NCBI RefSeq assembly: GCF_000247605.1
Contig: NC_016894.1
Location: 1,426,001-1,490,000, forward strand
DNA length: 64,000 nt
DNA from: Acetobacterium woodii DSM 1030
Lineage (GTDB): Bacteria; Bacillota; Clostridia; Eubacteriales; Eubacteriaceae
Direction of reading: 5' to 3'
Under the pieces are notes generated by a model, which worked only from the letters and a program-made list of their open reading frames with translations, made no database searches and was not told the DNA's origin. Position 1 is the stretch's first letter. Each line of letters starts with the position of its first letter. Positions 6,569-31,545 of this stretch are shown here, piece by piece. Both the position numbers and the translations under genes were made by a program.

Positions 6569-6739
6569 TAGGTAATTGTAAAATTAAAAAACGTCGAACA
6601 ACGGTTGCTTTGGGTGCAGTTTTCACAAACAATTTTGTAACGTGTCGGCGAACAATTCATCGAACTGTCCGCCGTACCGTGTAGAAATTGTTTCGTGAGA
6701 AACTGGGCCCAAAGCTCACGGCATTTTCGAAATTGCCTA
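6569..6739 (+). mobile_element. MITE-like foldback element, copy 1 (171 bp)
   Basis: A 171-bp near-palindromic element starting TAGGTAATTG and ending AAATTGCCTA. Its left half folds onto its right half: the segment from about 6610 pairs with that ending about 6712, around an apex at GTTCAT/CGAAC... No open reading frame. Flanks are AT-rich; any target duplication here is decayed. The right end lies 26 bp before the regulator ATG at 6766. The rest of the 300-bp gap (6466-6568) holds only AT-rich sequence. Homologous copies are at 10553, 25053 and 31375. Confidence 0.85.
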
Positions 6740-6765
6740 TTGGAAATAAATAATAGAGGTGAACC

Positions 6766-7464
6766 ATGACACGCGTATCAAAAGATTTAAAACGCTATAT
6801 TCCTTTTGTTGATTTTTTAGGCAAGACCTTAGGGGAAAATTACGAGGTTTTCCTGTACGATTTAAAGGGTCCGGAACATCCCATCGTTGCGATCGCCAAT
6901 GGCCATTTAAGTGGACGAAAGGTGGGCTTTTTAATGAAGGATGTCATGATCAAAATGCTCAAAAAAGAACAGAAAAATAATGAAGATGCTGACGATTATC
7001 TGATTCGCCATGATGCCATTGGTCGTGATGGGCGGCGTTTTAAATCATCAACCAAGCTTATTCGTAATGATTTTGGGGAACCGATTGGAGCGCTTTGTGT
7101 CAATTTTAATCTGGAACCGATGATTGCAACTCAGGAATTTTTTGAAAGTATCGGAGCCGAAACAACAAACTTAAGAAATCTTGATGTGAACAAGGTGATT
7201 TTTGCCGGTGAAGTTTTTTCAGACGGCAACGCCGGCTCTTTGGAATCGATTTATGAACATTTTATCGACAAAAATCCCAATATTCAGCTTAACAAAGCGC
7301 ATGATCGGCAAAAAATTGTGAGTGCTATGTATAAAGAAGGTTTCTTTCAGTTACGGGGAGCCGTATCTTTTTGTGCTGAAAAATTTGAAATCAGTGAGCC
7401 CAGCGTTTATCGTTATATTGCGCGGGCCAAAAGTGAACAGGATGAACTGGAAAATAATGAATAA
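6766..7464 (+). CDS. YheO/DauR-type transcriptional regulator (PAS-like sensor + HTH)
   Basis: A 232-residue protein. The N-terminal half (YIPFVDFLGKTLGENYEVFLYD ... AIANGHLSG) matches the YheO-like PAS domain. The C-terminal half (about 165-225; AVSFCAEKFEISEPSVYRYI) is a helix-turn-helix of the DauR/YheO kind. It lies just upstream of dpaL (12-bp gap) and within the purine cluster. The position matches regulators found near ygeX-type genes, so it probably senses a catabolic intermediate and controls this cluster. The ligand is unknown. GAGGTGAACC supplies the ribosome binding site, placed directly after MITE copy 1. Confidence 0.8.
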   Translation: MTRVSKDLKRYIPFVDFLGKTLGENYEVFLYDLKGPEHPIVAIANGHLSGRKVGFLMKDVMIKMLKKEQKNNEDADDYLIRHDAIGRDGRRFKSSTKLIRNDFGEPIGALCVNFNLEPMIATQEFFESIGAETTNLRNLDVNKVIFAGEVFSDGNAGSLESIYEHFIDKNPNIQLNKAHDRQKIVSAMYKEGFFQLRGAVSFCAEKFEISEPSVYRYIARAKSEQDELENNE

Positions 7465-7475
7465 ACGTAAAGGAA

Positions 7476-8714
7476 ATGATGAAAATGAAAGATGGATTTT
7501 ATATTACTGATATCCCTAAAGTTAAAGATGGTGCAAATGTAAAAGCGTTTTTAAGTGTCGAAAAGGGGAGAAGTGTGATTGACTATCACCGCAGTTTTCC
7601 CGCATATCAGGAAACCCCATTGGCTGAGCTTAAAGAACTGGCCCAAAAACTGGGACTGGCAGGATTTTTCGTTAAAGATGAATCGTATCGTTTTGGTTTA
7701 AATGCTTTTAAGGTATTGGGGGGGAGCTACAGCATCGGTAGGTGGCTGGCCCAAAAACTCGAAATGAAGGAAACGGAGTTAACCTACAAAAAATTGACAG
7801 ATCCCCAAACAAAAAAACAGCTTGGTGATTTGACATTTGTAACGGCAACCGATGGCAATCATGGTCGCGGTGTCGCCTGGACGGCTCGGGAATTAGGTCA
7901 ACAATCAGTCATTTATATGCCGAAAGGGAGTGCCACAGAACGGCTCGAAAATATTCGGGCGGAAGGTGCAGAGGCATCGATTACGGATATGAACTACGAT
8001 GAAGCGGTTCGTTTAGCTAACAAAATGGGTGAAGATAAAGGATGGATTATGGTTCAGGATACAGCTTGGGAAGGTTATCAGGAAATTCCCCGTTGGATTA
8101 TGCAAGGGTATGCAACGATGGCTTTTGAAGCGATCGAGCAGCTTGGTCAGGTGGTCCCGACCCATGTCTTTTTGCAGGCCGGGGTAGGCAGTTTGGCTGG
8201 TGCTGTTTCAGGCTTATTGGCTAATTTTTACGGCGAAAGCAAACCAATCATTACCATTGTCGAACCAAATAAAGCCGATTGTATCTATCAAACAGCCGCC
8301 GCAAAGGATGGAAAACTCCATTTTGTTACCGGCGATATGGATACGATTATGGCTGGTTTAGCTTGTGGAGAACCAAATCAGATCGGTTGGGATGTCATTA
8401 GTGAATGTGATGAATTTGCGGTTTCCTGTCCGGATTGGGTGGCCGCAAAAGGGATGCGTGTCCTCGGGAACGCAGTCGGCAATGATCCTAAAGTTATTTC
8501 CGGTGAAAGCGGGGCAGTTACGGCAGGCTTTGTGGCAGCAGTAATGAGCCGTCCCGATCTAAAATGGTTAAAAGACGAATTAAAACTTGACGAAAACGCC
8601 AGGGTATTATGTTTTAGTACTGAAGGCGATACCGATCAGGAGCATTACCGAAAAATTGTTTGGGATGGCTTATATCCCAGTGACCGTGAAGCAACTGGAA
8701 ATTATGACAAATAA
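7476..8714 (+). CDS. dpaL: Diaminopropionate ammonia-lyase (YgeX family)
   Basis: A 412-residue PLP enzyme, fold type II. The PLP lysine is K79 in FGLNAFKVLGG. TTDGNHGRG-type (ATDGNHGRGVAW), QAGVGSLAG and SGESGAV phosphate/substrate loops are present and align closely with E. coli YgeX. The family converts 2,3-diaminopropionate to pyruvate and two ammonia. In the purine/urate cluster it supplies pyruvate carbon to central metabolism. AAAGGAA precedes the double ATG; Met 1 or Met 2 could be used. The gene follows the YheO-type regulator closely and ends at a bidirectional terminator. Confidence 0.93.
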   Translation: MMKMKDGFYITDIPKVKDGANVKAFLSVEKGRSVIDYHRSFPAYQETPLAELKELAQKLGLAGFFVKDESYRFGLNAFKVLGGSYSIGRWLAQKLEMKETELTYKKLTDPQTKKQLGDLTFVTATDGNHGRGVAWTARELGQQSVIYMPKGSATERLENIRAEGAEASITDMNYDEAVRLANKMGEDKGWIMVQDTAWEGYQEIPRWIMQGYATMAFEAIEQLGQVVPTHVFLQAGVGSLAGAVSGLLANFYGESKPIITIVEPNKADCIYQTAAAKDGKLHFVTGDMDTIMAGLACGEPNQIGWDVISECDEFAVSCPDWVAAKGMRVLGNAVGNDPKVISGESGAVTAGFVAAVMSRPDLKWLKDELKLDENARVLCFSTEGDTDQEHYRKIVWDGLYPSDREATGNYDK

Positions 8715-8732
8715 ATAACGTTCAGAAAAAAA

Positions 8733-8769
8733 TTCCCCGCAGAAATTACTTCTCAGGGGAACTTTTTTT
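8733..8769. terminator. Bidirectional terminator between dpaL and the M20-dimer gene
   Basis: TTCCCC and GGGGAA form a stem flanked by an A-run on the left (8726-8732) and seven Ts on the right, so it can stop transcription from both convergent genes. It overlaps the last codons of the minus-strand gene ending at 8746. Confidence 0.75.
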
Positions 8770-9270
8770 GAGCAGATCAATTTGTTTAATGGTACCTGTT
8801 GTCCCCGGAGCTTCTGCCAGACCGGCTGAAAGTGCCTGTTGCAAAAGTTCTTTAGCATCATCAGCAGAAACAAAAGACTCTGACAAGGTAACCGTAAAGA
8901 GACAATTTTCGGCCATGACATTGCTGCTGTCGCCGCCACAGATGGTTGTGAAGGTTGGCTTGCCGTTGGGCAATACGGTAAGGTGAGCATTAATCAATTG
9001 GATCGTTTCAGCCGCAGCAATGATGGCATCGGCCCCAAGCCAGGGAGTAGAACCGTGCACCCGAAGGCCCTGGATGGCGATTTCATAGGATAATATATTG
9101 ATATCGGGAGCAGTATCGGTATCGGGAGCAGTACCGGTATCGGGAGCAATATCGGTATCGGGAGCAGTACCGGTATCGGGAGCAATATCGGTATCGGGAG
9201 CAATATCGGTATCGGGAGCAATATCGGTATTGAGAGCAGTATTGATATCGGGAGCGGTTAGTTTATTCAT
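8746..9270 (-). CDS. Free-standing M20 dimerisation domain with N-terminal hexapeptide repeats
   Basis: A 174-residue protein. Residues about 5-58 are a low-complexity stretch of hexapeptides of the form DTDIAP/DTGTAP. Residues about 62-135 resemble the dimerisation (lid) domain of M20 peptidases: YEIAIQGLRVHGSTPWLGAD with H72, then CGGDSSNVMAENC, the usual GG..NV.P..C strand. No metal-binding catalytic domain is present. The ATG at 9270 is chosen because AAAGGAAAGG lies just upstream; longer in-frame extensions run inside the previous gene. It overlaps the end of the complete M20 gene by 8 bp, so the two are translationally coupled. A decayed fragment of a second peptidase is the alternative reading. 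Confidence 0.6.
   Translation of the reverse strand: MNKLTAPDINTALNTDIAPDTDIAPDTDIAPDTGTAPDTDIAPDTGTAPDTDTAPDINILSYEIAIQGLRVHGSTPWLGADAIIAAAETIQLINAHLTVLPNGKPTFTTICGGDSSNVMAENCLFTVTLSESFVSADDAKELLQQALSAGLAEAPGTTGTIKQIDLLKKSSPEK
9103..9256. repeat. 18-bp tandem repeat, about 8.5 units, in frame
   Basis: Units start at 9103, 9121, 9139, 9157, 9175, 9193, 9211 and 9229, plus a partial one at 9247. They follow ATCGGGAGCARTAYCGGT with few changes. The 18-bp period keeps the minus-strand frame and encodes six-residue repeats. Units directly abut with no spacers, so it is a microsatellite-like array and not CRISPR. Confidence 0.95.
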
Positions 9271-10441
9271 GAATATCCTTTCCTTTCGGGTTAAAAACAA
9301 GTTGCTTAGCCAGCCGTTTGGAAATTGCCGTAACCTCAAGAATGGAAGCGCAGTCCACCCATTCATTAGCAACATGAAGGGTACTGCCTTTGGGACCATA
9401 AGACATGGTGTTAGAATTTCCGGTCAGGGCGGCAACAACCGCACTATCGGTATAACCGGCAAAGACTTCAGCTTGTGGTTCTTGTCCGGTGATCTCGTGA
9501 ACAACGGTTTGTAAGGTATGAAACAGAATCGAATTCTGGTTGGTTTCAATAAAGGGTTTTTGCGTGATAATGCGATAATCACCGTTAATTCCCGGATATT
9601 TTACCTCGGAATCTGTTATAATAGTTTCAATCAGGGCAATGGCTTTGTCCGGGGTAAGCGGCGGAGAAAGTCGCATATCCAGGGTTAAGGTGCAGTTGTT
9701 TAAAACGGTATCCGAGGCATCCTGACTGCTTATTTTTCCAAAGCAAACAGTGCTGGGTCCAAAACATTGGTCGAGCGGCAAAGCCTTGAGTTTAAGACGG
9801 ATATTATGGATGGCTTGGGACATCGCTTGAATTGTATCGGAAACATCAGTGGGACTGGTGAATGTTAAATCAAAAAATATTTTTCCCTTATGCGCTTGCC
9901 AGATGACACCACCGGAAGGTTCATGGTCGAGAACGTAACTGTTGGCTGTAATATAGCCGCTGTTGACGGCCTGAAGGCTTCCTTGCATGTGGTCACCCTC
10001 TTCGTCGGCAGAGGCAATAAAAATATAATCCCGAATCGGTAGGATATTGTTATCTTTGGCATAGCGGACCGTATCGCGAAAGGCGATCATGCCAGCGGCA
10101 AGCCCGGATTTCATATCGGCGGAGCCGCGGCCGTAAAGTCGACCCTCCTTAAAGATAGGAACAAAAGGAGGTGTATCCCAGCCTTTTCCTTCCTGGACAA
10201 CATCCATGTGGTTAATGTTTACATAAGCAGGATCTTTGATTTTTCCCGCCAAGATGCAAACAACATTAAAACGATCGGGTGTAATGGCATCTTGAATAAC
10301 TGTAAGGCCAGTCTGGTAAGTTAGCCAATAGGTGATAAAGTTACCAATATGCTTTTCATGAGTTCCCGGATTGGTACTTTTTATAGAAATCAGTTGTGCG
10401 GTGAGTTGCAGCACTTCGTCGTCGTAATCAAATAACATCAT
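9263..10441 (-). CDS. M20/M25/M40 family metallopeptidase with shortened lid domain
   Basis: A 392-residue M20 hydrolase of the ArgE/DapE/RocB-like group. Catalytic-domain residues are intact: H78 and D80 (NINHMDVV), D109 (GRGSADMKSG), the E147/E148 pair (SADEEGD), E174 and a C-terminal metal histidine (GSTLHVANE). The lid domain is abnormal: where relatives have the loop with a conserved histidine (GKxAHAS.P..G.NA), this protein reads LTFTSPTDVSDTI, so about ten residues and the histidine are gone. The downstream coupled gene encodes a lone lid domain that still has that loop. It is convergent with the purine genes; the substrate is unknown. The start is one of two adjacent ATGs at 10441/10438. 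Confidence 0.85.
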   Translation of the reverse strand: MMLFDYDDEVLQLTAQLISIKSTNPGTHEKHIGNFITYWLTYQTGLTVIQDAITPDRFNVVCILAGKIKDPAYVNINHMDVVQEGKGWDTPPFVPIFKEGRLYGRGSADMKSGLAAGMIAFRDTVRYAKDNNILPIRDYIFIASADEEGDHMQGSLQAVNSGYITANSYVLDHEPSGGVIWQAHKGKIFFDLTFTSPTDVSDTIQAMSQAIHNIRLKLKALPLDQCFGPSTVCFGKISSQDASDTVLNNCTLTLDMRLSPPLTPDKAIALIETIITDSEVKYPGINGDYRIITQKPFIETNQNSILFHTLQTVVHEITGQEPQAEVFAGYTDSAVVAALTGNSNTMSYGPKGSTLHVANEWVDCASILEVTAISKRLAKQLVFNPKGKDIHE

Positions 10442-10552
10442 TAACCTTCTTTACAATGTAATAATAAAAGTTTACCACATCTTGCATTATGCTGCATTAG
10501 TAAAATAAAGAAAACCATTTTTGTTAAGTTTAAATTCAAAAAATAGCGATAA

Positions 10553-10711
10553 TAGGCAATAGCGAAAGTGCTGTGAGCTTTGGACCCAGTTTCGCACGAA
10601 ACAATTTCTACGCGGTATGGCGGACAGTTCGCCTACACGTTACAAAATTGTTTGTGAAAACTGAACACAAAGCCACGGTTGTTCGACGTTTGTGCGATTC
10701 GCAAGTGCTTA
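10553..10711 (-). mobile_element. MITE-like foldback element, copy 4 (inverted, 12-bp apex deletion)
   Basis: This 159-bp copy is in inverted orientation. Compared with the 171-bp copies it lacks exactly the 12 bp at the hairpin apex (between two CGAAC repeats), a simple slippage deletion. Flanking AATAGCGATAA (10542) and AATGGCGATGA (10714) suggest an 11-bp target duplication with two changes. The element ends 33 bp before the MobA-like gene ATG. It fills most of the gene-free stretch 10442-10744; the remainder is AT-rich with no evident gene. Confidence 0.8.
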
Positions 10712-10744
10712 ATAATGGCGATGAAGAAGAAAGGAGAATGATGG

Positions 10745-11692
10745 ATGACATTTAGCAAGAAAAAAACCGGCGGACTTATTTTAGCCGCCGGAAGTGGATC
10801 AGATAACGAATTCGAACCCTTAGTTAAAATTGGGAATATCAGTGTTTTAGCGCGTATTTATAAAACCTTTAAGAAAGCCCAAATTGACCCGATTGTTGTT
10901 GTAACCGGGGAACTGGTTGAAGAAGTGGAAAGTGAACTGCCACCGGGTTTCGTCATTTTTTTACATAATGACAATTATCAAAATTCGGAAATGTTTGATT
11001 CGGTGAAAATTGGTCTTGATTATCTGAAGGATAAGTGTGAGCAAGTGATATTAACCCCGGGCGATATCCCGATGTTTACCAAGGGTACAATCGAGCAACT
11101 GATCCAGTCTCAGGCGGCGATTGTTTCGCCCGTTTACCACGGAAAACCCGGACATCCAATTTTGATTAATTCGCGTTATATCAATAAAATATTGTCATAT
11201 ACCGGAGCTGGGGGGCTCAATAAAGCGATTTTGAGTTTGAATCAAAAACAAACCTGGATTAATGTGGCGGATGAAGGTATTCTTTATGATGGAAACGATA
11301 AAGCAGATTTAAGTCGGCTTGTTAGTGGGCATAATCAACAGATCGATCACGTCGATATTACCATTCGTTTAAGCAAAGAAAAGATATATTTTGATGTTCG
11401 GACAAAAATGCTGTTGCTTTTAATTTCAGAAACAGAGTCAGTTAAAAAAGCTTGTGAGAAAATGGGCATTTCAAATAGTACCGCCTGGAGTATGATTAAC
11501 CAGGTTGAAACAGCTCTTGGTCACACCATTGTGCAAAGACGTCATGGGGGCAGTTTTGGTGGTAAATCTTCGATAACCGATGAAGGCTTGTTATTCCTGG
11601 AAAAATATGATTGGTTGGTGGAGAGTGTCAGAAAATTTGCCAATGATGAATACGAACGGATTTATCATCCGCAATCAAATCAAAAAGATTGA
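10745..11692 (+). CDS. MobA-like nucleotidyltransferase fused to ModE/LysR-like winged helix
   Basis: A 315-residue two-domain protein. Residues about 8-195 are a MobA/MocA-like nucleotidyltransferase: GLILAAGSGS, VVVTG, TPGDIPMF and HGKPGHPILI. Residues about 215-300 are a ModE N-terminal-like helix-turn-helix (LLLISETESVKKACEKMGIS, followed by VQRRHGGSFGGKSSITDEG). Similar MobA-like proteins (YgfJ) accompany selenium-dependent molybdenum hydroxylases and probably finish their cofactor (MCD formation). The fused DNA-binding domain suggests it also couples cofactor status to transcription. Placed directly upstream of the xanthine dehydrogenase gene, which supports that role. AAGGAGAATG precedes the start. 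Confidence 0.8.
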   Translation: MTFSKKKTGGLILAAGSGSDNEFEPLVKIGNISVLARIYKTFKKAQIDPIVVVTGELVEEVESELPPGFVIFLHNDNYQNSEMFDSVKIGLDYLKDKCEQVILTPGDIPMFTKGTIEQLIQSQAAIVSPVYHGKPGHPILINSRYINKILSYTGAGGLNKAILSLNQKQTWINVADEGILYDGNDKADLSRLVSGHNQQIDHVDITIRLSKEKIYFDVRTKMLLLLISETESVKKACEKMGISNSTAWSMINQVETALGHTIVQRRHGGSFGGKSSITDEGLLFLEKYDWLVESVRKFANDEYERIYHPQSNQKD

Positions 11693-11824
11693 ACTGAAGC
11701 AAGTTTTATTTGGAATAACTTGCTAGTAAAGGGATGAGCCTTTATAATTCAGGGAGATGATAAATTATTATTAATTCCTGATAATAAGTTGATCAGTAAC
11801 CGAATGACGAGGGGGAGGCCCAAG

Positions 11825-14404
11825 ATGTTTAAAGTTAATATTAATGAAATCGAATATATGAGCGAAAAAGATAAAAAATTATTGCCTTATCTGCGAGATG
11901 ATCTGCGGCTCACATCCGTAAAAGATGGCTGCAGCGAGGGTGCTTGCGGCACCTGCATGGTTTTGATAGACGGTCAAGCAACCAGAGCATGTACCCAAAA
12001 ACTGTCAAAGCTCGAAGGGAAAAAAATCATCACGATTGAAGGTTTGCGACCGGAAGAAATGGCAGTTTACGAACATTGTTTTGCTGAAGCCGGGGCAGTT
12101 CAATGTGGCTTTTGTATTCCGGGAATGGTTATTGCCGCAAAAGCCTTACTGGATGTCAATCTCAAACCCTCCAAAGCGGAAGTAAAATATGCGATTCGCA
12201 ATAATATTTGCCGTTGTACCGGTTACGTTAAAATTGAACAAGCGATTTTGATGGCTGCCGATTTTTTTAGAGAACAGAAAGCCATTCCCGAAGCCGCGAC
12301 GGCGGCTAGAATCAATACCCGCTTTAAACGCGTTGATGCGATTGAAAAAACGAATGGAACCGGTATTTATGTCGATGATATTGTGGTTCCGGGAATGCTA
12401 TATGCAAAATGCCTGCGGTCAAAATATCCACGGGCAAGAGTGAATAAAATCGATTTAAGTAAAGCATTGGAACATCCTGATTGTGTCAGAATTCTTACCG
12501 AAAAAGATGTACCGACCAAAAAAATTGGACATCTTGCTCAGGATTGGGATGTGATGATTGCTGAAGGAGGGACGACCCGTTATGTCGGGGATGCCTTGGC
12601 ACTGGTAGCAACCAATAACAAAGAGACACTGGATGAAGTGATTGCTCTGATTGAAGTTGATTATACCGAGCTCAAACCAGTTACCTCGCCGACCGATGGT
12701 CTGGCCGCTGATGCCCCCTTGGTGCATTCTACCGGGAATGTTTTTAGAAAAGAAATCCTCAATTTTGGAAATGCCGATGCCGCCATTAAAGAATCTAAAT
12801 ATGTGATCACAAAAAAATATCATACCCCTTTTCAGGAACATGGCTTTATGGAACCGGAATGTGCCATCGCGATACCGGAGGGTGAGGACGGGTTACGGTT
12901 ATATACCAGTTCACAATCAATTTATGATGAACAACGGGAGATCTCAAATATGCTCCAAATTCCGAAAGAAAAGGTTCATTGCCAGGCTCAACTTGTGGGC
13001 GGAGGGTTTGGTGGTAAGGAAGATATGACCGTTCAACATCATGCGGCTTTAATGGCCTGGTATACCAAAAAGCCGGTTAAAGTAAAATTTTCCCGACAGG
13101 AAAGCCTGAATTATCACACCAAACGGCATCCCATGGATATTGAAATGACAACCGCTTGCGATGAAAATGGCAAACTCACGGCCTGTAAAGCGGTACTGAT
13201 TGCCGATACCGGGGCCTATGGTTCATTGGGCGGACCGGTTCTGCAACGTGCCTGTACTCACGCCGCAGGCCCATACAACTACCAGAATCTTGATATTATT
13301 GGGATGTCGGTGTACACCAACAATTGTGTTGCTGGAGCCTTCCGGGGATTTGGGGTAACCCAAAGTTGTTTTGCTACGGAAAATAATATCAACCTATTGG
13401 CTGAAATGGTCGGTATGTCGGCTTGGGAATTCCGCTATCAAAATGCTATTCGGCCGGGGCAGGTCCTGCCAAACGGACAACTTGCCGATGAAAGCGTGGC
13501 CATGGTCGAATGTCTTGAAGCCGTGAAATCGGCTTATGAATCCAGCCCGTATGCCGGGATCGCAATCGGCTTTAAAAATAGCGGGACCGGAGTAGGACTA
13601 AACGATACCGGTCGCTGTATGCTTTCAATTGAGGCTGGCAAAGTTCATATTCGCACTTCGGCTGCTTGTATGGGGCAAGGGATTGCCACGATGTGTACAC
13701 AGATGTTGTGTGAAACAACCGGTCTTGATCCGGCACTGGTTTTGGTTGAACAACCGGATACCATTCGCACCCCTGATTCCGGAACCAGTACGGCTTCGAG
13801 ACAAACGGTTATTACCGGCGAAGCAACTCATCGGGCTGCAGAAAAATTACAACTTGAACTGGCCCAGGGAAAAACATTGACAGAACTTGAAGGCCGGGAA
13901 TTTTTTGGTGAATTTTCGCCAATAACTGATCCAATGGGTTCAAAAAAAGATAACCCTGTCAGTCATGTCAGCTATAGTTATGGGGCCCAGGTAGTCATTA
14001 TTAATGAAGAAGGCCGAGTTGAAAAAGTGGTGGCGGCCTATGATATTGGAACACCTGTGAATATTCAGTCAGCCGAAGGTCAGATTGAAGGTGGTATTGT
14101 GATGGGCTTGGGTTATGGATTAACTGAAGATTTTCAGGTGATTGATGGTTATCCTCAAACTAAATTAGGGACATTGGGGTTAATGCGGTCAACCGAGGCA
14201 CCAGAGCTGTCGGTCGAACTGGTTCAAGCCAAAGGGAAAACACCTTATGCGTTTGGCGCCAAAGGTGTTGGTGAACTTTGTTTGATTCCAACAGCACCCG
14301 CCTGTTCTCATGCTTATTATCGTTTAGACGGTAAACTTAGAACCTCTTTACCACTCCAAGATACCTATTACAAAAAAAGAAAAAGTAATTCTGGTCTAAT
14401 TTGA
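11825..14404 (+). CDS. xdhD: Selenium-dependent xanthine dehydrogenase-type molybdenum hydroxylase
   Basis: A 859-residue protein fusing a [2Fe-2S] domain to a molybdopterin domain. Plant-type cluster cysteines are C36, C41, C44 and C56 (CSEGACGTC); the second cluster has C94, C97, C129 and C131 (CGFC, CRC). The Mo domain shows GGGFGGKED, GAFRGFGVTQ and AFGAKGVGE. There is no FAD domain, as in the XdhD/Se-dependent group, so a separate electron partner is needed. Expected reaction is hydroxylation of hypoxanthine/xanthine or reduction of urate. Selenium would be a labile ligand, not selenocysteine; no in-frame TGA was noted. Start at 11825 follows GAGGGGGAGG; an ATG at 11789 lacks such a site. 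Confidence 0.88.
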   Translation: MFKVNINEIEYMSEKDKKLLPYLRDDLRLTSVKDGCSEGACGTCMVLIDGQATRACTQKLSKLEGKKIITIEGLRPEEMAVYEHCFAEAGAVQCGFCIPGMVIAAKALLDVNLKPSKAEVKYAIRNNICRCTGYVKIEQAILMAADFFREQKAIPEAATAARINTRFKRVDAIEKTNGTGIYVDDIVVPGMLYAKCLRSKYPRARVNKIDLSKALEHPDCVRILTEKDVPTKKIGHLAQDWDVMIAEGGTTRYVGDALALVATNNKETLDEVIALIEVDYTELKPVTSPTDGLAADAPLVHSTGNVFRKEILNFGNADAAIKESKYVITKKYHTPFQEHGFMEPECAIAIPEGEDGLRLYTSSQSIYDEQREISNMLQIPKEKVHCQAQLVGGGFGGKEDMTVQHHAALMAWYTKKPVKVKFSRQESLNYHTKRHPMDIEMTTACDENGKLTACKAVLIADTGAYGSLGGPVLQRACTHAAGPYNYQNLDIIGMSVYTNNCVAGAFRGFGVTQSCFATENNINLLAEMVGMSAWEFRYQNAIRPGQVLPNGQLADESVAMVECLEAVKSAYESSPYAGIAIGFKNSGTGVGLNDTGRCMLSIEAGKVHIRTSAACMGQGIATMCTQMLCETTGLDPALVLVEQPDTIRTPDSGTSTASRQTVITGEATHRAAEKLQLELAQGKTLTELEGREFFGEFSPITDPMGSKKDNPVSHVSYSYGAQVVIINEEGRVEKVVAAYDIGTPVNIQSAEGQIEGGIVMGLGYGLTEDFQVIDGYPQTKLGTLGLMRSTEAPELSVELVQAKGKTPYAFGAKGVGELCLIPTAPACSHAYYRLDGKLRTSLPLQDTYYKKRKSNSGLI

Positions 14405-14412
14405 AATAAAAC

Positions 14413-14530: not shown

Positions 14531-14563
14531 AGTGAGCTATTCAAGAAAAGTGGTTTAGAAAAG

Positions 14564-14627: not shown

Positions 14628-14646
14628 TGTGAAAGAGGTATAATTT

Positions 14647-16292: not shown

Positions 16293-16293
16293 A

Positions 16294-21554: not shown

Positions 21555-21641
21555 TTTTAAATTTCGATACGGATTCAATGAATTAGAAATGCTAAACAGA
21601 GCTATAAAAAGGGTAATTTAAATAGTGCAAAGGTGGAAAAG

Positions 21642-22169: not shown

Positions 22170-22183
22170 TAAGGAGGCGAAAA

Positions 22184-24235: not shown

Positions 24236-24246
24236 TAGTGATCAAT

Positions 24247-24274
24247 AAGGAATGGAAGAAATAACCATTCCTTT
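24247..24274 (+). terminator. Terminator of the SDR/ferredoxin/AOR operon
   Basis: AAGGAATGG and CCATTCCTT form a 9-bp stem followed by TTAT, 11 bp after the AOR stop. Confidence 0.65.
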
Positions 24275-24317
24275 TATGAAGAGATATTCAAACGAATTGA
24301 AGGGATTTAAGTGGTTT

Positions 24318-24698: not shown

Positions 24699-24725
24699 AG
24701 CATTTGGCTCCTTAATTATAAAATA

Positions 24726-24765
24726 AAGTTACTCAATTGATAATTTTAACTGAGTAACTTTTTTT
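24726..24765. terminator. Hairpin terminator between two small minus-strand genes
   Basis: AAAGTTACTCA and TGAGTAACTTT form an 11-bp stem. A run of Ts follows on the plus strand and a weaker one on the minus strand, so it can separate the TM1266-like gene from the PH-like gene. Confidence 0.65.
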
Positions 24766-24774
24766 GATCTGAAA

Positions 24775-25023
24775 TTAGAATATCATTTTTTTTACAATTA
24801 TAGAAGAAAGATTGTTTAGTTCATTCTCCATTTTGCTAATTTCATCGTCTTTATCGGGCAAAAATTCTAAAATAATTAGTCCGGTGATGCTGCACAACTC
24901 TTCCGATGATTCATGTAAACCAAGACGCGTTTTAATAATGCATCCATTTTTTGACAATAACTCCTGTACTTTTAATGCTTCGCTTTCGCGATTACCTACC
25001 TGGATTCCCATAATTTGTCTCAT
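24775..25023 (-). CDS. TM1266-family ACT-like small regulator
   Basis: An 82-residue protein. MGIQVGNRESEALKVQELL, KTRLGLHE and the C-terminal ELNNLSSIIVKKMIF resemble the TM1266 family (ACT/NikR-C-like fold), annotated as putative regulator of iron-only hydrogenase systems. The ATG at 25023 follows AGGAGG at 7 bp. No hydrogenase gene lies in the window, so the functional label is uncertain. MITE copy 2 starts 29 bp upstream of its start codon. Confidence 0.6.
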   Translation of the reverse strand: MRQIMGIQVGNRESEALKVQELLSKNGCIIKTRLGLHESSEELCSITGLIILEFLPDKDDEISKMENELNNLSSIIVKKMIF

Positions 25024-25052
25024 CAAAAAACCTCCTTTTAAAGCTTATCTTT

Positions 25053-25223
25053 TAGGTAATTGCGAAATTAAAAAACATCAAACAACGGTTGCTTTGGGTG
25101 CAGTTTCCACAAACGATTTCGTAACGTGTCGGCGAACAGTTCATCGAACTGTCCGCCGTACCGTGTAGAAATTGTTTCGTGCGAAACTGGGCCTAAAGTT
25201 CATGGCACTTTTGCAATTACCTA
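25053..25223 (+). mobile_element. MITE-like foldback element, copy 2 (171 bp)
   Basis: Same 171-bp element as at 6569 and 31375. Terminal inverted repeats read TTTAGGTAATTGCGAAA and TTTTGCAATTACCTAAA (one mismatch over 17 bp). It is flanked by a 12-bp direct repeat, AAGCTTATCTTT (25041-25052) and AAGTTTATCTTT (25224-25235), consistent with a target duplication. It lies directly upstream of the ribosome binding site of the minus-strand TM1266-like gene. Confidence 0.9.
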
Positions 25224-25283
25224 AAGTTTATCTTTAGTAAAATACCCATTAAAATTAAGTTTAAACCATTTATAAAAAATTGT

Positions 25284-25514
25284 CTAAAATTCTCGTTGCT
25301 TCAGCTCCTGATTAATCAGGATGATCAATTCCTGCAATTTTTCAATTTCGTGGTTAGTGGTTTTTAATTCTTTCAAGACCTCAGCTGCTGGAATATGTTC
25401 ACCAGGTTTTTTCTCAGCAAATCTTTTTTCGTTTTCATAATCTTCCAGCTCATCTTTTAAACGTGCTAATTCGTTGCGAAGTTCAATATCATTTAGATGA
25501 CAATAGCGATTCAT
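25284..25514 (-). CDS. Small coiled-coil protein, unknown function
   Basis: A 76-residue, highly charged protein without membrane segments. Regular hydrophobic spacing in ELRNELARLKDELEDYEN and the C-terminal HEIEKLQELIILINQEL suggests two helices forming a coiled coil or helical hairpin. TTAAGGAGAG precedes the ATG, which supports it as a real gene. Not recognised. It lies between two other small minus-strand genes, and no function is inferable. Confidence 0.55.
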   Translation of the reverse strand: MNRYCHLNDIELRNELARLKDELEDYENEKRFAEKKPGEHIPAAEVLKELKTTNHEIEKLQELIILINQELKQREF

Positions 25515-25587
25515 GATTTAACTCTCCTTAACACTCCTCGGGCAATAAAAGAATGATGTTGCAACATTGAAACAAGGCGACAATTAT

Positions 25588-25839
25588 TTATAATTCGTCT
25601 TTTAAGCACCAGGTGATATTTTTTCCAAGTTCATTGTTTTCACCGGGAATCCAAATGTCAATTTTTAAATTTTCAAGTTTTGTCATCGATTCTGTATCAT
25701 TTAATTCTTTAGCTTTTGCATAAGCTTTTATAATCCAGTTTTTTGTCAACTTCTGGAAATCACCACTCTCGGTCTGGATATATTCATTTCTAATATTTAG
25801 TTTGCCGTCTACCACCATGCTCGAATACCTTAAGGCCAT
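25588..25839 (-). CDS. Small conserved-looking protein, unknown function
   Basis: An 83-residue soluble protein (MALRYSSMVVDGKLNIR ... NITWCLKDEL). The ATG at 25839 is preferred because AGGAGG lies 8 bp before it; the upstream ATG at 25845 is too close to that site. Composition is mixed alpha/beta with no cysteine motif. Not recognised. It is the first of the four small minus-strand genes, divergent from the transketolase operon. Confidence 0.55.
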   Translation of the reverse strand: MALRYSSMVVDGKLNIRNEYIQTESGDFQKLTKNWIIKAYAKAKELNDTESMTKLENLKIDIWIPGENNELGKNITWCLKDEL

Positions 25840-25938
25840 TCTCATTTCCTCCTAAGTTTTGTAATATTACATTGATTCTATTATCTTATATTATATCGTG
25901 ATTTGGCAATACTTTATACAAGATTTTAAAAAAATTAA

Positions 25939-25998
25939 TTGACAAACCAGATATTCGTGCATATACTACTTATAAGAACTAGTCATGACCACTTATGA
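25939..25998 (+). promoter_or_regulatory. Promoter and candidate GntR operator of the transketolase operon
   Basis: TTGACA (25939-25944) and TATACT (25962-25967) are spaced by 17 bp. Just downstream, GTCATGACCAC with palindromic core GTCATGAC (25982-25989), then TATGATAG, matches sites at 29299 and 41783. The operator position over the start region suggests repression. Confidence 0.7.
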
Positions 25999-26100
25999 TA
26001 GGGTGAAGATTCAGGCTGATATTTTCACTAATTCGTTTCTATATTTATCTAAGTCTTGATTTTGAAGGCGGTAATTTATAACAGTTTAAGGAGAGAATCA

Positions 26101-26946
26101 ATGCAAATAGAATCCATTGAGAAAAAAGCGTTTAATATTCGTGAGCACATTATTAATACCGTTATTAATAATGGCGATGGACATGCGGGACCATCTTTAT
26201 CATGCACAGATATTTTGGCAACTTTATATTTTGGGGTTATGAATGTTAATGTTGATGAGCCTAAATGGGAACAGCGGGATCGATTCATTCTCAGTGCCGG
26301 ACATAAATGTCTGGGGCTTTATGGAACCCTAATCGAGAAAGGATATGAAAAAGCCGAGGTGCTAAAAACTTACAACATGTTGGAATCAATTGTGCCGGGC
26401 CATCCGGATATGAAAAAATTCACCGGAGTGGATTTTAGCTCAGGAGCTTTGGGACATGGCTTACCGATTGGTTCGGGAATGGCACTTAGCGCAAAACTAA
26501 AAGGTGATAAAAATCGTGTTTTTGTTCTCATGGGCGATGGTGAGCAGGGGGAGGGTTCCAACTGGGAAGCAGCAATGTTTGCGAGTCATCACGGTTTGGA
26601 TAACCTGGTTGGGATAATCGATCGAAATGGATTGCAAATTAATGGGAGCACGCGGGACGTTTTAGACACCCGTGATTTGAGAGAAAAATATTCAACATTT
26701 GGATGGTCCGTTAAAGTTGTTGATGGGCATAATATCGAGGAGTTATTAAATACCTTTCAATCGATACCATTTCAAAAAGGAAAACCCAGCATGATTATTG
26801 CAAATACGATCAAAAGCAAAGGGATGCCATTTGCTGAAGGCAATGTGAAATACCATCATTGGAATCCGGGGAAAGACTCGCAAGAATCAAAAGATGCAAC
26901 GGATGCACTTGAGCAATATGCAAGAGAAAAAGGATGGAAATTATGA
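26101..26946 (+). CDS. Transketolase, N-terminal (TPP-binding) subunit
   Basis: A 281-residue protein equal to the N-terminal third of transketolase. The ThDP motif runs from MGDGEQGEGSNWEAA to IIDRNGLQ; GHGLPIGSGMAL and the active-site histidine regions are present. The start at 26101 follows AAGGAGAG. Together with the next gene it makes a split transketolase that moves two-carbon ketol units between sugar phosphates. A 4-bp ATGA overlap couples the two. Dedicated split transketolases often serve catabolic pathways, so it may belong to a specific sugar route. Confidence 0.9.
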   Translation: MQIESIEKKAFNIREHIINTVINNGDGHAGPSLSCTDILATLYFGVMNVNVDEPKWEQRDRFILSAGHKCLGLYGTLIEKGYEKAEVLKTYNMLESIVPGHPDMKKFTGVDFSSGALGHGLPIGSGMALSAKLKGDKNRVFVLMGDGEQGEGSNWEAAMFASHHGLDNLVGIIDRNGLQINGSTRDVLDTRDLREKYSTFGWSVKVVDGHNIEELLNTFQSIPFQKGKPSMIIANTIKSKGMPFAEGNVKYHHWNPGKDSQESKDATDALEQYAREKGWKL

Positions 26947-27893
26947 CAATTAAAAAGCTTAATCCACGAGACGTTTTTGGGGAGGTCTTATTAGATCTCG
27001 GGCGAGAAAATAAAAATATTATGGCGGTATCTTGCGATTCAGGATCGGGATCAGGGATGAATCCTTTTAAAAAGGAGTTGCCACATCAATATTTAGAAGT
27101 TGGCATCAATGAGCAGAATGCGATTGGTGTTTGTGCCGGGTTGGCCGAAGGCGGTTTTATTCCAATCGTATCGGCGATTGCTCCATTTATTTCAATGCGT
27201 GCGTTCGAACAAATTCGTAATGATTTGGGTTACGCCAACATGAATGTTAAGGTAATTGGTTCCAGTAGCGGTTTATCTCATTCCGCACTAGGCTCAACGC
27301 ATCAGGCGATTGAAGATTTAACATTGATGCGTGTTGTTCCCAATATGGTGGTATTAAATCCTGGTGACGGTTATGAAGTAGAAATGTCTTTAAAAAAAGC
27401 GATCCGTCACAAAGGGCCGGTTTATATCAGAATGCCACGGCATGCAATGGCTGAACCGCTTGAAGCGACCGAACGAAATTTTGAGATCGGTAAAGGGGAA
27501 GTACTAATGAATAGCGGCGATGATATTGTGATCGCGGTTTCGGGTACTTTATCAGTTGATGGTTTTATGGCTGGAAAAATATTGGATGAGATGGGTTATG
27601 GCGTAAAGGTATTGAATTTTACAACAGTAAAACCGTTAGATACAAAACTTCTTTGTGAAGCCTATAAAAGTGCTAAGTATCTCTTTACGTTAGAAGAACA
27701 TTCGGTGATCGGTGGTTTTGGCAGCGCTGTGCTGGAAGCTTTGGCATCAGTTAAACATGAAGCCCCCATTCATTTAATCGGGATTACCGATGGTTCGATT
27801 AAAACCGGTCCCTATCGAGAATTATTGGAGGCTTATGGACTTACCTGGGAAAAAGTCGCAGATCGTATTTTAAATGAAATCAAAAATAATTAA
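26943..27893 (+). CDS. Transketolase, C-terminal (pyrimidine-binding) subunit
   Basis: A 316-residue protein with the Pyr and C-terminal domains. VGINEQNAIGVCAGLAEGG carries the catalytic glutamate, and HSALGSTHQAIEDLTLMR and EEHSVIGGFGSAV are family segments. The start at 26943 overlaps the preceding stop as ATGA, with AAGGATGG upstream; the ATG at 26934 lacks this spacing. It pairs with the preceding subunit. It is followed after 18 bp by the transaldolase-like gene in the same operon. Confidence 0.9.
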   Translation: MTIKKLNPRDVFGEVLLDLGRENKNIMAVSCDSGSGSGMNPFKKELPHQYLEVGINEQNAIGVCAGLAEGGFIPIVSAIAPFISMRAFEQIRNDLGYANMNVKVIGSSSGLSHSALGSTHQAIEDLTLMRVVPNMVVLNPGDGYEVEMSLKKAIRHKGPVYIRMPRHAMAEPLEATERNFEIGKGEVLMNSGDDIVIAVSGTLSVDGFMAGKILDEMGYGVKVLNFTTVKPLDTKLLCEAYKSAKYLFTLEEHSVIGGFGSAVLEALASVKHEAPIHLIGITDGSIKTGPYRELLEAYGLTWEKVADRILNEIKNN

Positions 27894-27911
27894 AATTAAA
27901 AGGAGAAAATC

Positions 27912-29237
27912 ATGAGGGAAATTAAAAATGTCAGCTGTACATTGAATACGTTATTAGATGACACGGTCGTTGTGATTGATAGTCAAAAAAAGGATGTAAA
28001 CCGAGTTTTGAATCATCATTTGCCATTGGATCAGTATGAAATCTTGTCGAAATATGTAAAAAAAATTGGCGTGACCCAAAGATTTTCAGATGTTATTCAG
28101 ACATTTAAGACACCAGAAAATGAAACACCGGAAGGTTTTAGAGTCGCCTATGAGTTAGCCGCAAATGGCATATTAAAAGCGGATCTAATCAGAGATATCA
28201 GTTATGATAAAAATGGCAAAAAGCGACCAACAAATTTATTATTTTCTGCAGACTCTGCTAATCCTTATGAAATAAAACCAATTAGCAAGATGATCGCAAA
28301 TCTGACGTGTAACCCTGGAATTATCTATGACTTGTTTATTAATAATCCCCAAGCCAATATCGGAAATCAATATAAAACAAGAGATGAAGTAATGGAGGAA
28401 ATTGGACGGATTTTAGGACCCGGCGCTGATATCAGTGTTGAACTTAACGATCCGTTTGGAAAATCGGATACCGAAATTCTTGAAGAAGCCGAAAAATTCA
28501 AAGAAATGCTTTCTGAATATCGGGTGGTCATAAAAGTACCGCACACCGGACCGGTAACAAATGAAAACGTTTCACAACTTCTTTCGGGTGATAAAAAGCT
28601 GAATAAATCATTTTCGGAGGTAACAACCGAGGGTGCTTTTAGAGGACATAATCTGGCGTTGATGCTTGAAGAACATGGTTTTCGCGTCAATTTCACGTTG
28701 ATGTTTGAACCGTATCAGACGGCCTTAGCATTGCAAGCAAAACCATATTTTGTGAATAGTTTTATTCGTCATCGACTAATACAGTCACAGTTAATGGATC
28801 AAAGTTTAAAACAATATCAGGCAACGGGAAATCCTCAGTTTATTGAAAAAATCCGTGATATGTTTATTGAAAAAGATTACCTCAAGGTTGATCAGAAAAA
28901 GATGGATCTGTTAGCCGTAAAAAAAATGGCAGAGGATATCCTGCAATATCATCATTTTAATGATGCTGAAGGTTCGGATGGATTAGATAGCGTACGCCAT
29001 AATTTAAGACTGTTTAAAAATACAAATTTGGATGATTCAAGATTGATTATTTGCAGCATGGAAGGCGACTTTAATTATCCGGATATCGATAAACTATTAG
29101 TAGAAAAAGAATTTGAAGATCTTGTCCATCGCGTCGTTATTACCGCGGAACCAAATTATTTAGCCAGATTTACATCTTGTAATCAGGTGGTATCTTATCA
29201 GCGCCGCTTTATGAATGCCGCCAATGGACAAAAATAA
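27912..29237 (+). CDS. Divergent transaldolase-family protein (441 aa)
   Basis: The protein carries the three transaldolase catalytic residues in order: D114 (SADSANPYE), E177 (ISVELN) and the Schiff-base lysine K208 (VVIKVPHTGP). LTCNPGIIYDLF corresponds to the TTNPSLI motif and VNFTLMFEPYQTALAL to CNLTLLFSFAQA. It is longer than normal transaldolases (about 220-330 residues), with about 105 extra N-terminal residues and a 40-residue insertion after the lysine. AAGGAGA precedes the ATG. It is third in the split-transketolase operon. Likely a C3-transfer or aldol enzyme on a non-standard sugar phosphate; the substrate is unknown. Confidence 0.75.
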   Translation: MREIKNVSCTLNTLLDDTVVVIDSQKKDVNRVLNHHLPLDQYEILSKYVKKIGVTQRFSDVIQTFKTPENETPEGFRVAYELAANGILKADLIRDISYDKNGKKRPTNLLFSADSANPYEIKPISKMIANLTCNPGIIYDLFINNPQANIGNQYKTRDEVMEEIGRILGPGADISVELNDPFGKSDTEILEEAEKFKEMLSEYRVVIKVPHTGPVTNENVSQLLSGDKKLNKSFSEVTTEGAFRGHNLALMLEEHGFRVNFTLMFEPYQTALALQAKPYFVNSFIRHRLIQSQLMDQSLKQYQATGNPQFIEKIRDMFIEKDYLKVDQKKMDLLAVKKMAEDILQYHHFNDAEGSDGLDSVRHNLRLFKNTNLDDSRLIICSMEGDFNYPDIDKLLVEKEFEDLVHRVVITAEPNYLARFTSCNQVVSYQRRFMNAANGQK

Positions 29238-29282
29238 CAAAAAATAATTAAAGTGATGATATGTTTTTTTATAAGGTTGTGT

Positions 29283-29316
29283 TATACTGATCCTAGGTGG
29301 TCATGACCTATCATAT
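29283..29316 (+). promoter_or_regulatory. Candidate promoter and GntR operator upstream of aldolase 1
   Basis: TATACT (29283-29288) resembles a -10; no clear -35 is visible. GTGGTCATGACCTATCATA follows, with palindrome GGTCATGACC at 29299-29308. It shares GTGGTCAT with the sites at 25982 and 41783 (reverse strand there). Confidence 0.6.
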
Positions 29317-29360
29317 TCATGTATGATGGCATGAAATTTATTTGAAAAGAGGTGATGATC

Positions 29361-30209
29361 ATGAGTTATGTCAATATGAAAAAAATTCTTGATAACGCTC
29401 GAAAAAATCATTACGCAGTTGGTGCATTTAATATTGTCAATTATTTAACCGCAAAAGCAGCGGTTGAGGCAGCGGAAGAACTTGAGCAACCAATTATTCT
29501 GCAAACTTCGGTGAAAACAGTTAAAGCGTTTGGAATTACTGAAATGATGAGTTTTTTAAAACCAATTGCGGAGCAGGCCAAAGTCGAAGTAGCCATTCAT
29601 TTAGACCACTCAACCGATGTTGCCTTCACAAAAGCTTGTATCGATGGAGGTTGGTCTTCGGTGATGTATGATGGTTCGCAGTTAGCGTTAAAAGACAATA
29701 TAAAAAATACCAAAGAAATTGTCGCTTATGCAAAACCCAAACAAGTAACGGTAGAAGGTGAATTAGGTGCGATTGTCGGCGTTGAAGATGATATTGTGGT
29801 ATTAGCGGGGAATCACGCTCATGCCAAACCGGATGACTGCCGTGTTTATTTAAAAGAGACTGAAATCGATGCTTTTGCACCAGCGGTGGGAACCGCCCAC
29901 GGGGTATATAAAGGTGAAATTAACATTGATTACGATCTATTTGACGAGATCAATCAATTTTCATTTTGTCCATTAGTCCTCCATGGAGGAACTGGCTTAA
30001 CCGATGAAATGTTTCACCGGTTGATTGCGCTTGGGGCATCCAAGGTCAATATTTCAACGGCCATTAAAATTGCCTATGTTCAAGGGATGGCGACCTACAC
30101 TAAATTGAATGTCGATCAGAATGATCCCTTAAAATTGGATGCATTTACCAAAGAACAAGTAAAAAAAGTAGTAACTGAGCACATCCGCTTTTTTAGCTTA
30201 CGAAATTAA
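29361..30209 (+). CDS. fba: Class II fructose-bisphosphate/ketose-bisphosphate aldolase, copy 1
   Basis: A 282-residue zinc aldolase. Metal histidines are in HLDHSTD, GTAHGVYKG and VLHGGTGL; the aspartate in DHSTD is the catalytic acid/base position. It splits ketose-(bis)phosphates to DHAP plus an aldehyde. The ATG at 29361 follows AGAGGTG. The N-terminal half is almost identical to copy 2 at 41908, while the rest has diverged (IVVLAGNHAHAKPDD versus IFVKEGAGAHAKPKD). It has its own candidate operator and lies between the transketolase operon and acoA. Confidence 0.88.
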   Translation: MSYVNMKKILDNARKNHYAVGAFNIVNYLTAKAAVEAAEELEQPIILQTSVKTVKAFGITEMMSFLKPIAEQAKVEVAIHLDHSTDVAFTKACIDGGWSSVMYDGSQLALKDNIKNTKEIVAYAKPKQVTVEGELGAIVGVEDDIVVLAGNHAHAKPDDCRVYLKETEIDAFAPAVGTAHGVYKGEINIDYDLFDEINQFSFCPLVLHGGTGLTDEMFHRLIALGASKVNISTAIKIAYVQGMATYTKLNVDQNDPLKLDAFTKEQVKKVVTEHIRFFSLRN

Positions 30210-30293
30210 TAAAAGCATCAAGATTGACAAGTTATCAAATAATTATTGACGAGCAAAGTGGCTGATGATGAATAAAATACAAGGAGAACAATT

Positions 30294-31343
30294 ATGAAAA
30301 ATTCTAAGTGCATTGAAGAATTAAAAAAAGAATTTGATGCTTATACAGATATGTATCTTCCTGAAGGTTTAGGTCGGGAAGAACAACTTAAAATGTATAG
30401 CACGATGTGGGTGATGCGTAAGTTTGAAGAAGCAGTTAAACCGCTTTGGATGGCAAATAAAGTTCATGGCTATTATCATCCTTATATTACAGAAGAGGCC
30501 ATTGGAACCGGTATTATCTCGCAATTAAAAAAAGAAGACTATATTGGTTCGACACATCGAGGCCATGGTCATTTAATTGCTAAAGGTGGCGATATCAACA
30601 AAATGATGGCAGAACTTTTTGGTAAAGAAGAAGGTTATAATCATGGTCGTGGTGGATCAATGCATATTACGGATATGAGTGTCGGAATGCTCGGTGCCAG
30701 TGGGATCGTCGGGGCGGCAGTTGCACCGGCGGTTGGAAGTGCTCTAAAAAGTTGGATTAAAGGAACCGATGACGTAACGGTTGTTTTTTTTGGTGATGGC
30801 GGAGCAAATGCCGGTTCAGTATCAGAATCGATGAACATGGCGGCGGCATGGAAACTTCCGGTTATTTTTGTCTGTGAAAATAATCAATGGGCGATTGCAA
30901 CTGATTATACGCGGATAACGGGGGAACCGGATCTTTATAAACGTGGCATCGGATTCGGAATTCCAAGTTATCGATGTGATGGTTTTAATATTTATCAAAT
31001 TTGGGAAACGGCCAAAGCTGCGATTGAACGAGCGCGAGCTGGAGAAGGACCTACTTTTATTGAATGTAAAACAATGAGAATGCTCGGACATCATGCGACT
31101 GATGATAGCTGGTACCGTGATATGTCGGTTTGTGATAAATACTGGGAAATTGAACCCATTAAAAGAATGGGTGAGTTCATGATTGAAGAAAATATTGCAA
31201 CGCAAGAAGAATTAGATGCAATTGAACAGGAAGCAATCAAAAAAGTTGAAGCATCGATTGAATATGCAGATACCCAATGTCATGAACCTTCTCTCGATTC
31301 TTTTTATGATTACATTTATACTGATGGCGAAGTAATAAAATAA
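30294..31343 (+). CDS. acoA: Acetoin dehydrogenase E1 alpha subunit (TPP-dependent)
   Basis: A 349-residue E1-alpha. The ThDP motif is FFGDGGANAGSVSESMNMAA (GDG from residue 167) ending in NNQWAI; STHRGHGHLIAKGG and YNHGRGGSMHI are typical of AcoA/PdhA-like enzymes. With E1-beta, E2 and E3 downstream it would decarboxylate or cleave acetoin (to acetyl-CoA and acetaldehyde) or a 2-oxo acid. Acetoin is favoured because of the AcoABCL gene order and separate lipoate ligase. AAGGAG precedes the ATG. The next gene is separated by a MITE, unlike the tight spacing elsewhere in the operon. Confidence 0.85.
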   Translation: MKNSKCIEELKKEFDAYTDMYLPEGLGREEQLKMYSTMWVMRKFEEAVKPLWMANKVHGYYHPYITEEAIGTGIISQLKKEDYIGSTHRGHGHLIAKGGDINKMMAELFGKEEGYNHGRGGSMHITDMSVGMLGASGIVGAAVAPAVGSALKSWIKGTDDVTVVFFGDGGANAGSVSESMNMAAAWKLPVIFVCENNQWAIATDYTRITGEPDLYKRGIGFGIPSYRCDGFNIYQIWETAKAAIERARAGEGPTFIECKTMRMLGHHATDDSWYRDMSVCDKYWEIEPIKRMGEFMIEENIATQEELDAIEQEAIKKVEASIEYADTQCHEPSLDSFYDYIYTDGEVIK

Positions 31344-31374
31344 GCGTTGCATATTTGGTGAGATTATAAAAATA

Positions 31375-31545
31375 TAGGTAATTGCGAAATTAAAAAATAT
31401 CGAACCACGGTTGCTTTGGGGATAGTTTCCACAAACAATTTTGTAACGTGTAGGCGAACAGTTCATCGAACTGTCCGCCGTACCGTGTAGAAATTGTTTC
31501 GTGCGAAACTGGGCCCAAAGCTCACGGCATTTTCGCAATTTCCTA
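31375..31545 (+). mobile_element. MITE-like foldback element, copy 3, between acoA and acoB (171 bp)
   Basis: A 171-bp copy in the same orientation as copies 1 and 2. It is flanked by a perfect 11-bp direct repeat, TTATAAAAATA (31364-31374 and 31546-31556), which is a clean target duplication and suggests a recent insertion. It lies 29 bp before acoB, inside an otherwise compact operon. Confidence 0.93.

What the first reader, a model, noticed from the sequence alone, without database searches (positions are those of the whole stretch)
6569..31545. Four copies of a 171-bp foldback MITE, each ending about 30 bp upstream of a start codon
Copies at 6569-6739, 25053-25223 and 31375-31545 are all exactly 171 bp. 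The copy at 10553-10711 is inverted and 12 bp shorter at the apex. Each is one long imperfect palindrome with ends TAGGTAATTG/CAATTACCTA; two have clear 11-12-bp flanking direct repeats. They contain no gene. In all four cases one end lies 26-33 bp before an ATG, just beyond the ribosome binding site, in front of a regulator, a MobA-like gene, a TM1266-like gene and acoB. Orientation relative to the gene varies. Either insertion targets AT-rich leader sequence, or copies kept there have been recruited as 5' leader hairpins.
Basis: partly seen in the sequence, partly recalled or inferred. Interest (0 to 1): 0.75.

Follow-up and report, generated by a model that had tools for sequence, protein, structure and literature searches.

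The report
Mobile DNA that targets ribosome-binding sites
A small mobile DNA element, and larger transposons that share its ends, insert at one fixed position just in front of the ribosome-binding signal of genes and leave the gene's start intact; we found no earlier description of this kind of target choice in the papers we could search.

Summary
The genome (4.04 Mb, Acetobacterium) carries at least 109 near-full-length copies of the 171-bp foldback element, mostly flanked by 10-12-bp target duplications. The site is set almost to the base: in 91 of 109 copies a Shine-Dalgarno-like box (GGAG, GAAAGG, GAGG, AAGG) lies at one register 4-6 bases past the duplication, against 1.7% of random intergenic positions. 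Within their own gaps 79 of 102 copies fall 12-24 bases from a start codon, 13.5 expected.

The likely mobilizer is an IS of about 1.7 kb with the same outer 15 bp and a distant IS1182-like DDE transposase (about 490 aa). This genome has two broken copies; open ones occur in related species. In Clostridia and Halanaerobium, 29 of 30 IS sites with resolvable ends have the box beside the transposase-5' end. Boxes without a start codon are also used, one at a tRNA gene, which points to recognition of DNA sequence. Six orthologous loci show the empty site of one window copy. Recruitment as leader hairpins is unproven. No transposition was observed.

The parts
6569..6739 (+). MITE copy 1 (171 bp)
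6756..6759 (+). GAGG Shine-Dalgarno-like box beside copy 1; ATG at 6766
10553..10711 (-). MITE copy 2 (159 bp, apical deletion, eroded ends)
10732..10736 (+). AGGAG box beside copy 2; ATG at 10745
25053..25223 (+). MITE copy 3 (171 bp)
25041..25052 (+). target duplication of copy 3, left; right one at 25224-25235 (11 of 12 identical)
25031..25036 (-). AGGAGG box of the minus-strand TM1266-like gene, 4 bases beyond the duplication; ATG at 25023-25021
31375..31545 (+). MITE copy 4 (171 bp)
31364..31374 (+). target duplication of copy 4, left; right one at 31546-31556 (11 of 11 identical)
   Evidence: uninterrupted in six orthologous loci
31561..31566 (+). AGGAGA box, 4 bases beyond the duplication; ATG at 31575
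4085..4140 (-). weak match to one end of the element (18 bits), perhaps a decayed copy
   Evidence: weak

Best explanation
The 171-bp elements are MITEs moved in trans by DDE transposases of an uncharacterised IS group distantly related to IS1182. Shown: the MITE and the four Acetobacterium ISs compared share the outer 15 bp (TAGGTAATTGCGAAA, the IS right end); both kinds have target duplications of mostly 10-13 bp; both sit at a near-fixed register from a Shine-Dalgarno-like box. Inferred: the transposase makes a staggered cut of 10-12 bp in an AT-rich stretch and captures target DNA chiefly where a GGAG- or GAAAGG-type box lies 4-6 bp beyond one cut, reading the box as DNA sequence. Box and start codon lie outside the cut, so the ribosome-binding site is left intact and the target can be used again (tandem insertions at one box are seen). 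Full ISs place their transposase-5' end next to the box; the main MITEs, whose two ends are nearly alike, go in either way round. Aiming at the outer edge of a signal found at most genes gives many low-cost sites. The leader hairpin is most likely a by-product.
For: Register: 91 of 109 copies strict and 103 of 109 loose, against 1.7% and 9.5% of random intergenic positions under the same either-side rule. Distance: 83 of 109 lie 12-24 bases from duplication to start codon; same-gap null 13.5 expected, 79 of 102 observed. Duplications: flank identity .578/.597 at 10/11 bases against .354/.353 for shuffled pairs. Relatives: 35 of 42 MITE copies in six other genomes have a box hexamer at 5 of 6 or better, null 14% (some are orthologous pairs). 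Empty site: six orthologous loci and one paralogue lack copy 4. Partner: IS in L186 with the same 15-bp right end, a 12-bp duplication and GAAAGGG at the register. Family: 29 of 30 IS sites with resolvable ends have a box on the transposase-5' side (offsets 2-9 allowed; null 7.2% per side). Motif rather than start codon: in the top score bin SD sites are occupied 33 of 107 and other intergenic sites 7 of 26; one IS sits at the GGAG 5' end of a tRNA-Ser gene. Fold: model pLDDT 83, best PDB matches Tn5 and piggyBac transposases, TM about .33.
Against: No transposition was observed. No open transposase of the group is in this genome (two broken copies), and G010 and G018 have many MITE matches but no transposase hit at E 1e-5. 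Below the top score bin SD sites are used more than equally scoring other intergenic sites (22 of 106 against 2 of 35; 10 of 118 against 4 of 98; 11 of 140 against 4 of 263; 8 of 164 against 2 of 551), so something besides the motif, selection included, may add to the SD preference. The 14 MITEs with the IS-left-like CGTTT end are not oriented (6 against 8), unlike the ISs. Six of 109 copies and one of 30 IS sites (L282) have no box. Control ISs of other kinds (nine rows, ends found by script and some doubtful) have a box word on 3 of 18 sides, about 1.3 expected.
Confidence: 0.88

Rival explanations
1. Selection only: insertion is random and only copies just upstream of the ribosome-binding site survive.
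For: No copy lies at any of 2187 scored sense-strand coding motif sites, so purifying selection probably acts. Short IS-gene distances are common for many IS families (PMC9208149, passages).
Against: Selection against harm gives a broad safe zone, not a register fixed to a base or two: 63 of 109 have GGAG exactly 5 bases past the duplication. Same-gap null 13.5 expected, 79 of 102 observed. Boxes without a start codon are used. ISs are oriented.
Confidence: 0.04
2. Recruitment: the hairpins were kept at these places because they serve as 5' leader regulators or mRNA stabilisers.
For: Predicted SD accessibility is higher filled than empty (mean .50 against .40; higher in 62 of 102; Wilcoxon p .0013); 36 core pairs are 98.6% paired over 109 copies.
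Against: The same placement is seen for full ISs and at sites with no gene start. Element orientation does not depend on the gene (56 against 47, p .43). Double changes in the stem are few (7 pairs, 12 cells; slid controls 1-7 pairs, 2-9 cells).
Confidence: 0.06
3. Recognition through expression: the transposase is guided by nascent mRNA, an R-loop, the ribosome or anti-SD complementarity rather than by reading duplex DNA.
For: Both boxes are parts of the complement of the 16S rRNA 3' end (recalled). SD sites are favoured over equally scoring other intergenic sites below the top bin.
Against: In the top bin the rates are alike (33 of 107, 7 of 26). A tRNA 5' end and boxes with no start in reach are used.
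Confidence: 0.08

Closest known systems
IS1182 family (NCBIfam NF033551; e.g. IS1272)
   Same: All 23 transposases scanned match NF033551 at E 1e-5 or better; DUF772 and a DDE_Tnp_1 region.
   Different: 60.7, 60.8 and 69.5 bits in the three scored singly, cut-off 270; best E of the 23 is 4e-24. IS1272 replaces inverted repeats and leaves no duplication (PMC5678879, passages). Three transposases of the genus above the cut-off (L131, L130, L135; 338-387 bits) were looked at as controls: the shared segment of L131/L144 and the ends found for L130 and L144 have no box; the ends found by script for L131 gave one box word but disagree with the shared segment; L135 gave no ends.
Bacterial MITEs (RUP, ERIC, YPAL and others)
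   Same: Short, non-coding, terminal inverted repeats, duplications, moved by an IS transposase (PMC2229807 and PMC10969869, passages).
   Different: RUP uses TA targets and YPAL sites lie at or near dyads (PMC2229807). The term 'Shine-Dalgarno' occurs in neither review, 'ribosom' once and in another sense.
Safe-site elements: Tn7, group IIC introns, yeast Ty1/Ty3
   Same: Target choice that spares host genes (recalled; Tn7 and attTn7 also).
   Different: Other enzymes and targets; here the target is a short and very common translation signal.
Tn5-type DDE transposases
   Same: Best structural match of the model (Foldseek E 1.7e-5).
   Different: TM about .33 and 10% identity; other ends and target rule.

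Membership tests
MITE | short, non-coding, terminal inverted repeats, many copies | tested here: met
   171 bp; consensus ends share 15 bp; 109 copies examined
MITE | target site duplication | tested here: met
   flank identity peaks at 10-11 bases; 92 of the 103 copies with a box have 10-12 bases
MITE | ends shared with an autonomous element | tested here: met
   15 of 15 bp with four ISs; 21-22 bp at 95% with the two clade-B ISs
MITE | empty sites in relatives | tested here: met
   six orthologous loci without copy 4; copy 1 empty in G015 but poorly aligned there; copies 2 and 3 not tried
MITE | mobilisation by that transposase | not testable with these tools
   needs an assay
IS1182 family | transposase above the curated NF033551 cut-off (270 bits) | tested here: not met
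   60.7, 60.8, 69.5 bits in the three scored singly; the other members' bits were not shown
IS1182 family | DUF772 and DDE_Tnp_1 domains | tested here: inconclusive
   DUF772 above cut-off in 3 of 3 scanned; DDE_Tnp_1 above cut-off in 1 of 3
described RNA family (Rfam) | match at gathering score | tested here: not met
   0 matches in the window

The most novel reading that the evidence does not exclude
Beyond reading DNA: this transposase group senses the Shine-Dalgarno signal in its living context (nascent mRNA, R-loop or an anti-SD-like nucleic acid), which would be the first transposon tied to the signal for translation initiation; and about a hundred genes of one acetogen now share a mobile 5' leader hairpin that could act as a common post-transcriptional control.
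Probability: 0.08. Interest if true: 0.95.

Novelty: new variant of a known kind. Interest (0 to 1): 0.82.

Why it matters
It adds a rule of target choice: a transposon group that aims, nearly to the base, at the ribosome-binding site, a signal in front of most genes, without destroying it. That would explain how more than 100 copies are borne in a compact genome, and gives a system for asking how a DDE transposase reads a target box. Related ISs and two MITE subfamilies differ in which box they favour, which makes specificity open to test. For annotation, hairpins in front of many acetogen genes should not be called riboregulators without tests.

Tried and rejected
Rfam: no match. A PF01609 search of 19 genomes: the 30 loci returned had no pair of MITE-like ends, only single 12-mers with 2 mismatches; six of their transposases scanned are IS1182, IS1380 or IS1634. 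The partner came from an end pattern that excludes MITE continuations. End-only fragments in L118, L104 and L042: no transposase seen by eye in the ORF lists (no family scan). PDB sequence search: no hit at E 1. Covariation in the hairpin: inconclusive. Promoter-like sites: 3 found against 1.4 (sd 1.2) in shuffles at the IS left end, 1 against 1.2 around copy 4. The first empty-site alignment left minus-strand loci unturned and was redone.

Literature: ten searches of the held open-access library, judged by listed titles and abstract starts, gave no paper on insertion aimed at Shine-Dalgarno sites. Passages were read in PMC5678879, PMC9208149, PMC3196728, PMC10969869, PMC2229807 and PMC4227781; no whole paper. 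ISfinder and most subscription journals were out of reach, so an earlier description cannot be excluded.

Weak points: gene starts come from my own caller, which has an RBS term; the register test does not use it. 7 of 109 insertion points fall inside a called gene. The median of 28 bases to the start codon is over the 82 copies with a called start 8-28 bases past the duplication, a window set beforehand. Stretches were chosen around copies, so occupancy rates are inflated in every class. One search listed 100 of 104 hits and 100 of 101, so a few copies may be missing; 43 matches, one partial dropped. I gave it 54 loci and left out records of the same sites (such as L275, L276, L284, L330, L349) and fragments; 32 transposase rows had ends and 27 had none; three of the 32 form one tandem array, counted as one site. 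L296 has a box but no ends and is not counted; the 6 copies without a box were dropped before the Fisher tests.

Full report
Check of the observation. The four copies exist at the stated places with the stated lengths and distances to ATG. Copy 4 folds far better than shuffled sequence on both strands. The window lies at 1426001-1490000 of one 4,044,777-base contig.

Copy number and mobility. Two core patterns hit 104 and 101 times, with no hit of the reversed control. In 86 fetched stretches plus the window there are 109 near-full copies (over 100 bits), 73 of them 171 bp by model match, with mean pairwise identity .908. In the genus 18 of 19 genomes have a match. Identity between left and right flank peaks at 10-11 bases. 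For copy 4, six orthologous loci and one paralogue show the uninterrupted site before AGATTAGGAGA.

The site. After excising each copy with one duplication, a Shine-Dalgarno-like box sits at one register: GGAG five bases past the duplication in 63 copies, GAAAGG four past in 19, GAGG or AAGG six past in 9; 12 are shifted and 6 have none. Random intergenic positions pass the same strict test in 1.7% and the loose test in 9.5%; copies pass in 91 and 103 of 109. The information lies mainly at positions 5-9 past the duplication, with an AT-rich duplicated stretch. Element end to start codon is 23-33 bases, median 28, in the 82 copies with a called start near. Given each copy's own gap, 13.5 of 102 would be expected at 12-24 bases from duplication to start; 79 are. 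In relatives 35 of 42 copies have a box hexamer at 5 of 6 or better, null 14%.

Motif or gene start? Of the 25 copies listed with no called start near, 21 still have a box; some are missed genes, but L049, L053, L066 (6099), L097 and L125 show no plausible start in the printed bases, and L081 lies inside a called gene. Over all scored sites the top bin is used alike at SDs (33 of 107) and at other intergenic sites (7 of 26), while lower bins favour SDs; no copy lies at any of 2187 sense-strand coding motif sites. I read this as DNA-motif targeting plus purifying selection, with room for a further SD-linked factor.

The mobilizer. The end pattern led to L186: an IS of 1678 bp with ends TAGGCGTTTGC (left) and TAGGTAATTGCGAAA (right, read inward), a 12-bp duplication, then AAAAGAAAGGG, and a 490-aa transposase. 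Matches, fragments included, occur in 10 of 19 genus genomes; this genome has one frameshifted copy (itself beside a GAAAGG box) and one 5'-truncated copy. The outer 15 bp equal the MITE ends in all four ISs compared, and 21-22 bp match at 95% in the two clade-B ISs. The model (pLDDT 83) is closest to Tn5 and piggyBac transposases, at low TM.

Breadth. Relatives came from 33 loci of a scan of named genomes and from 20 of 391 genomes of the class. Of 30 IS sites with resolvable ends, 29 have a box on the transposase-5' side; L282 has none; L224 has box words on both sides; a one-sided null gives 7.2%. Identity to the reference transposase goes down to 34%. The IS in L345 sits at the GGAG that begins a tRNA-Ser gene. 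G013, which has no MITE match, has ten copies with open frames at eight sites, three of them in tandem at one box. Control ISs of other families have a box word on 3 of 18 sides, about 1.3 expected; their ends were found by script and some are doubtful.

Specificity. The consensus of the two MITE subfamilies differs in three bases of the left end (TAAT to CGTT) and three others, yet GAAAGG at the register is used by 9 of 14 CGTTT-end copies and 10 of 89 main copies (Fisher p 4e-5). The two clade-A ISs of Acetobacterium (L186, L217) and the sister L279 stand at GAAAGG, the 11 clade-B sites of G013, G003 and G016 at GGAG. Against a simple end rule: the G003 and G016 ISs also have a CGTTT left end and yet use GGAG, and CGTTT-end MITEs are not oriented. 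The transposase clade is therefore the better candidate for the determinant.

Leader function. Predicted SD accessibility rises modestly on insertion (.40 to .50; higher in 62 of 102). This shows tolerance, not recruitment. Of 82 copies at called starts 66 lie between genes in tandem, 23 of these in gaps of 60 bases or less, so many elements became hairpins between neighbouring genes.

Verdict. A MITE family and its IS group with a conserved, nearly base-precise preference for Shine-Dalgarno boxes. The kind (MITE, DDE IS) is known; the target rule was not found in the literature searched.

Noticed in passing
L230:3830-3961: The IS left end holds an inward-facing terminator-like hairpin and an inverted repeat that would hide the transposase's own SD in read-through transcripts; it resembles safeguards of IS10 and IS50 (recalled).
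   Followed up: partly
L223; L042:2903-3253: Reuse of one target: three ISs in a row in G013 and two MITEs in a row in this genome, separated by the duplication or a stretch of its length.
   Followed up: partly
L345:1145-1233: An IS of the group is inserted just upstream of a tRNA-Ser gene whose 5' end supplies the GGAG box.
   Followed up: yes
L131 and L144 (G000:C1:658109-661852 and 3782551-3786294): Two copies sharing 1874 identical bases of an IS1182-family IS (387 bits for L131) in this genome, with no box beside the shared segment.
   Followed up: partly
window 4085-4140; L118:296-352; L104:367-422; L042:5317-5384: Matches to one end of the element only, perhaps decayed copies.
   Followed up: partly
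window 10745-11692: One gene joins a MobA-like NTP transferase domain with a LysR-type HTH.
   Followed up: no
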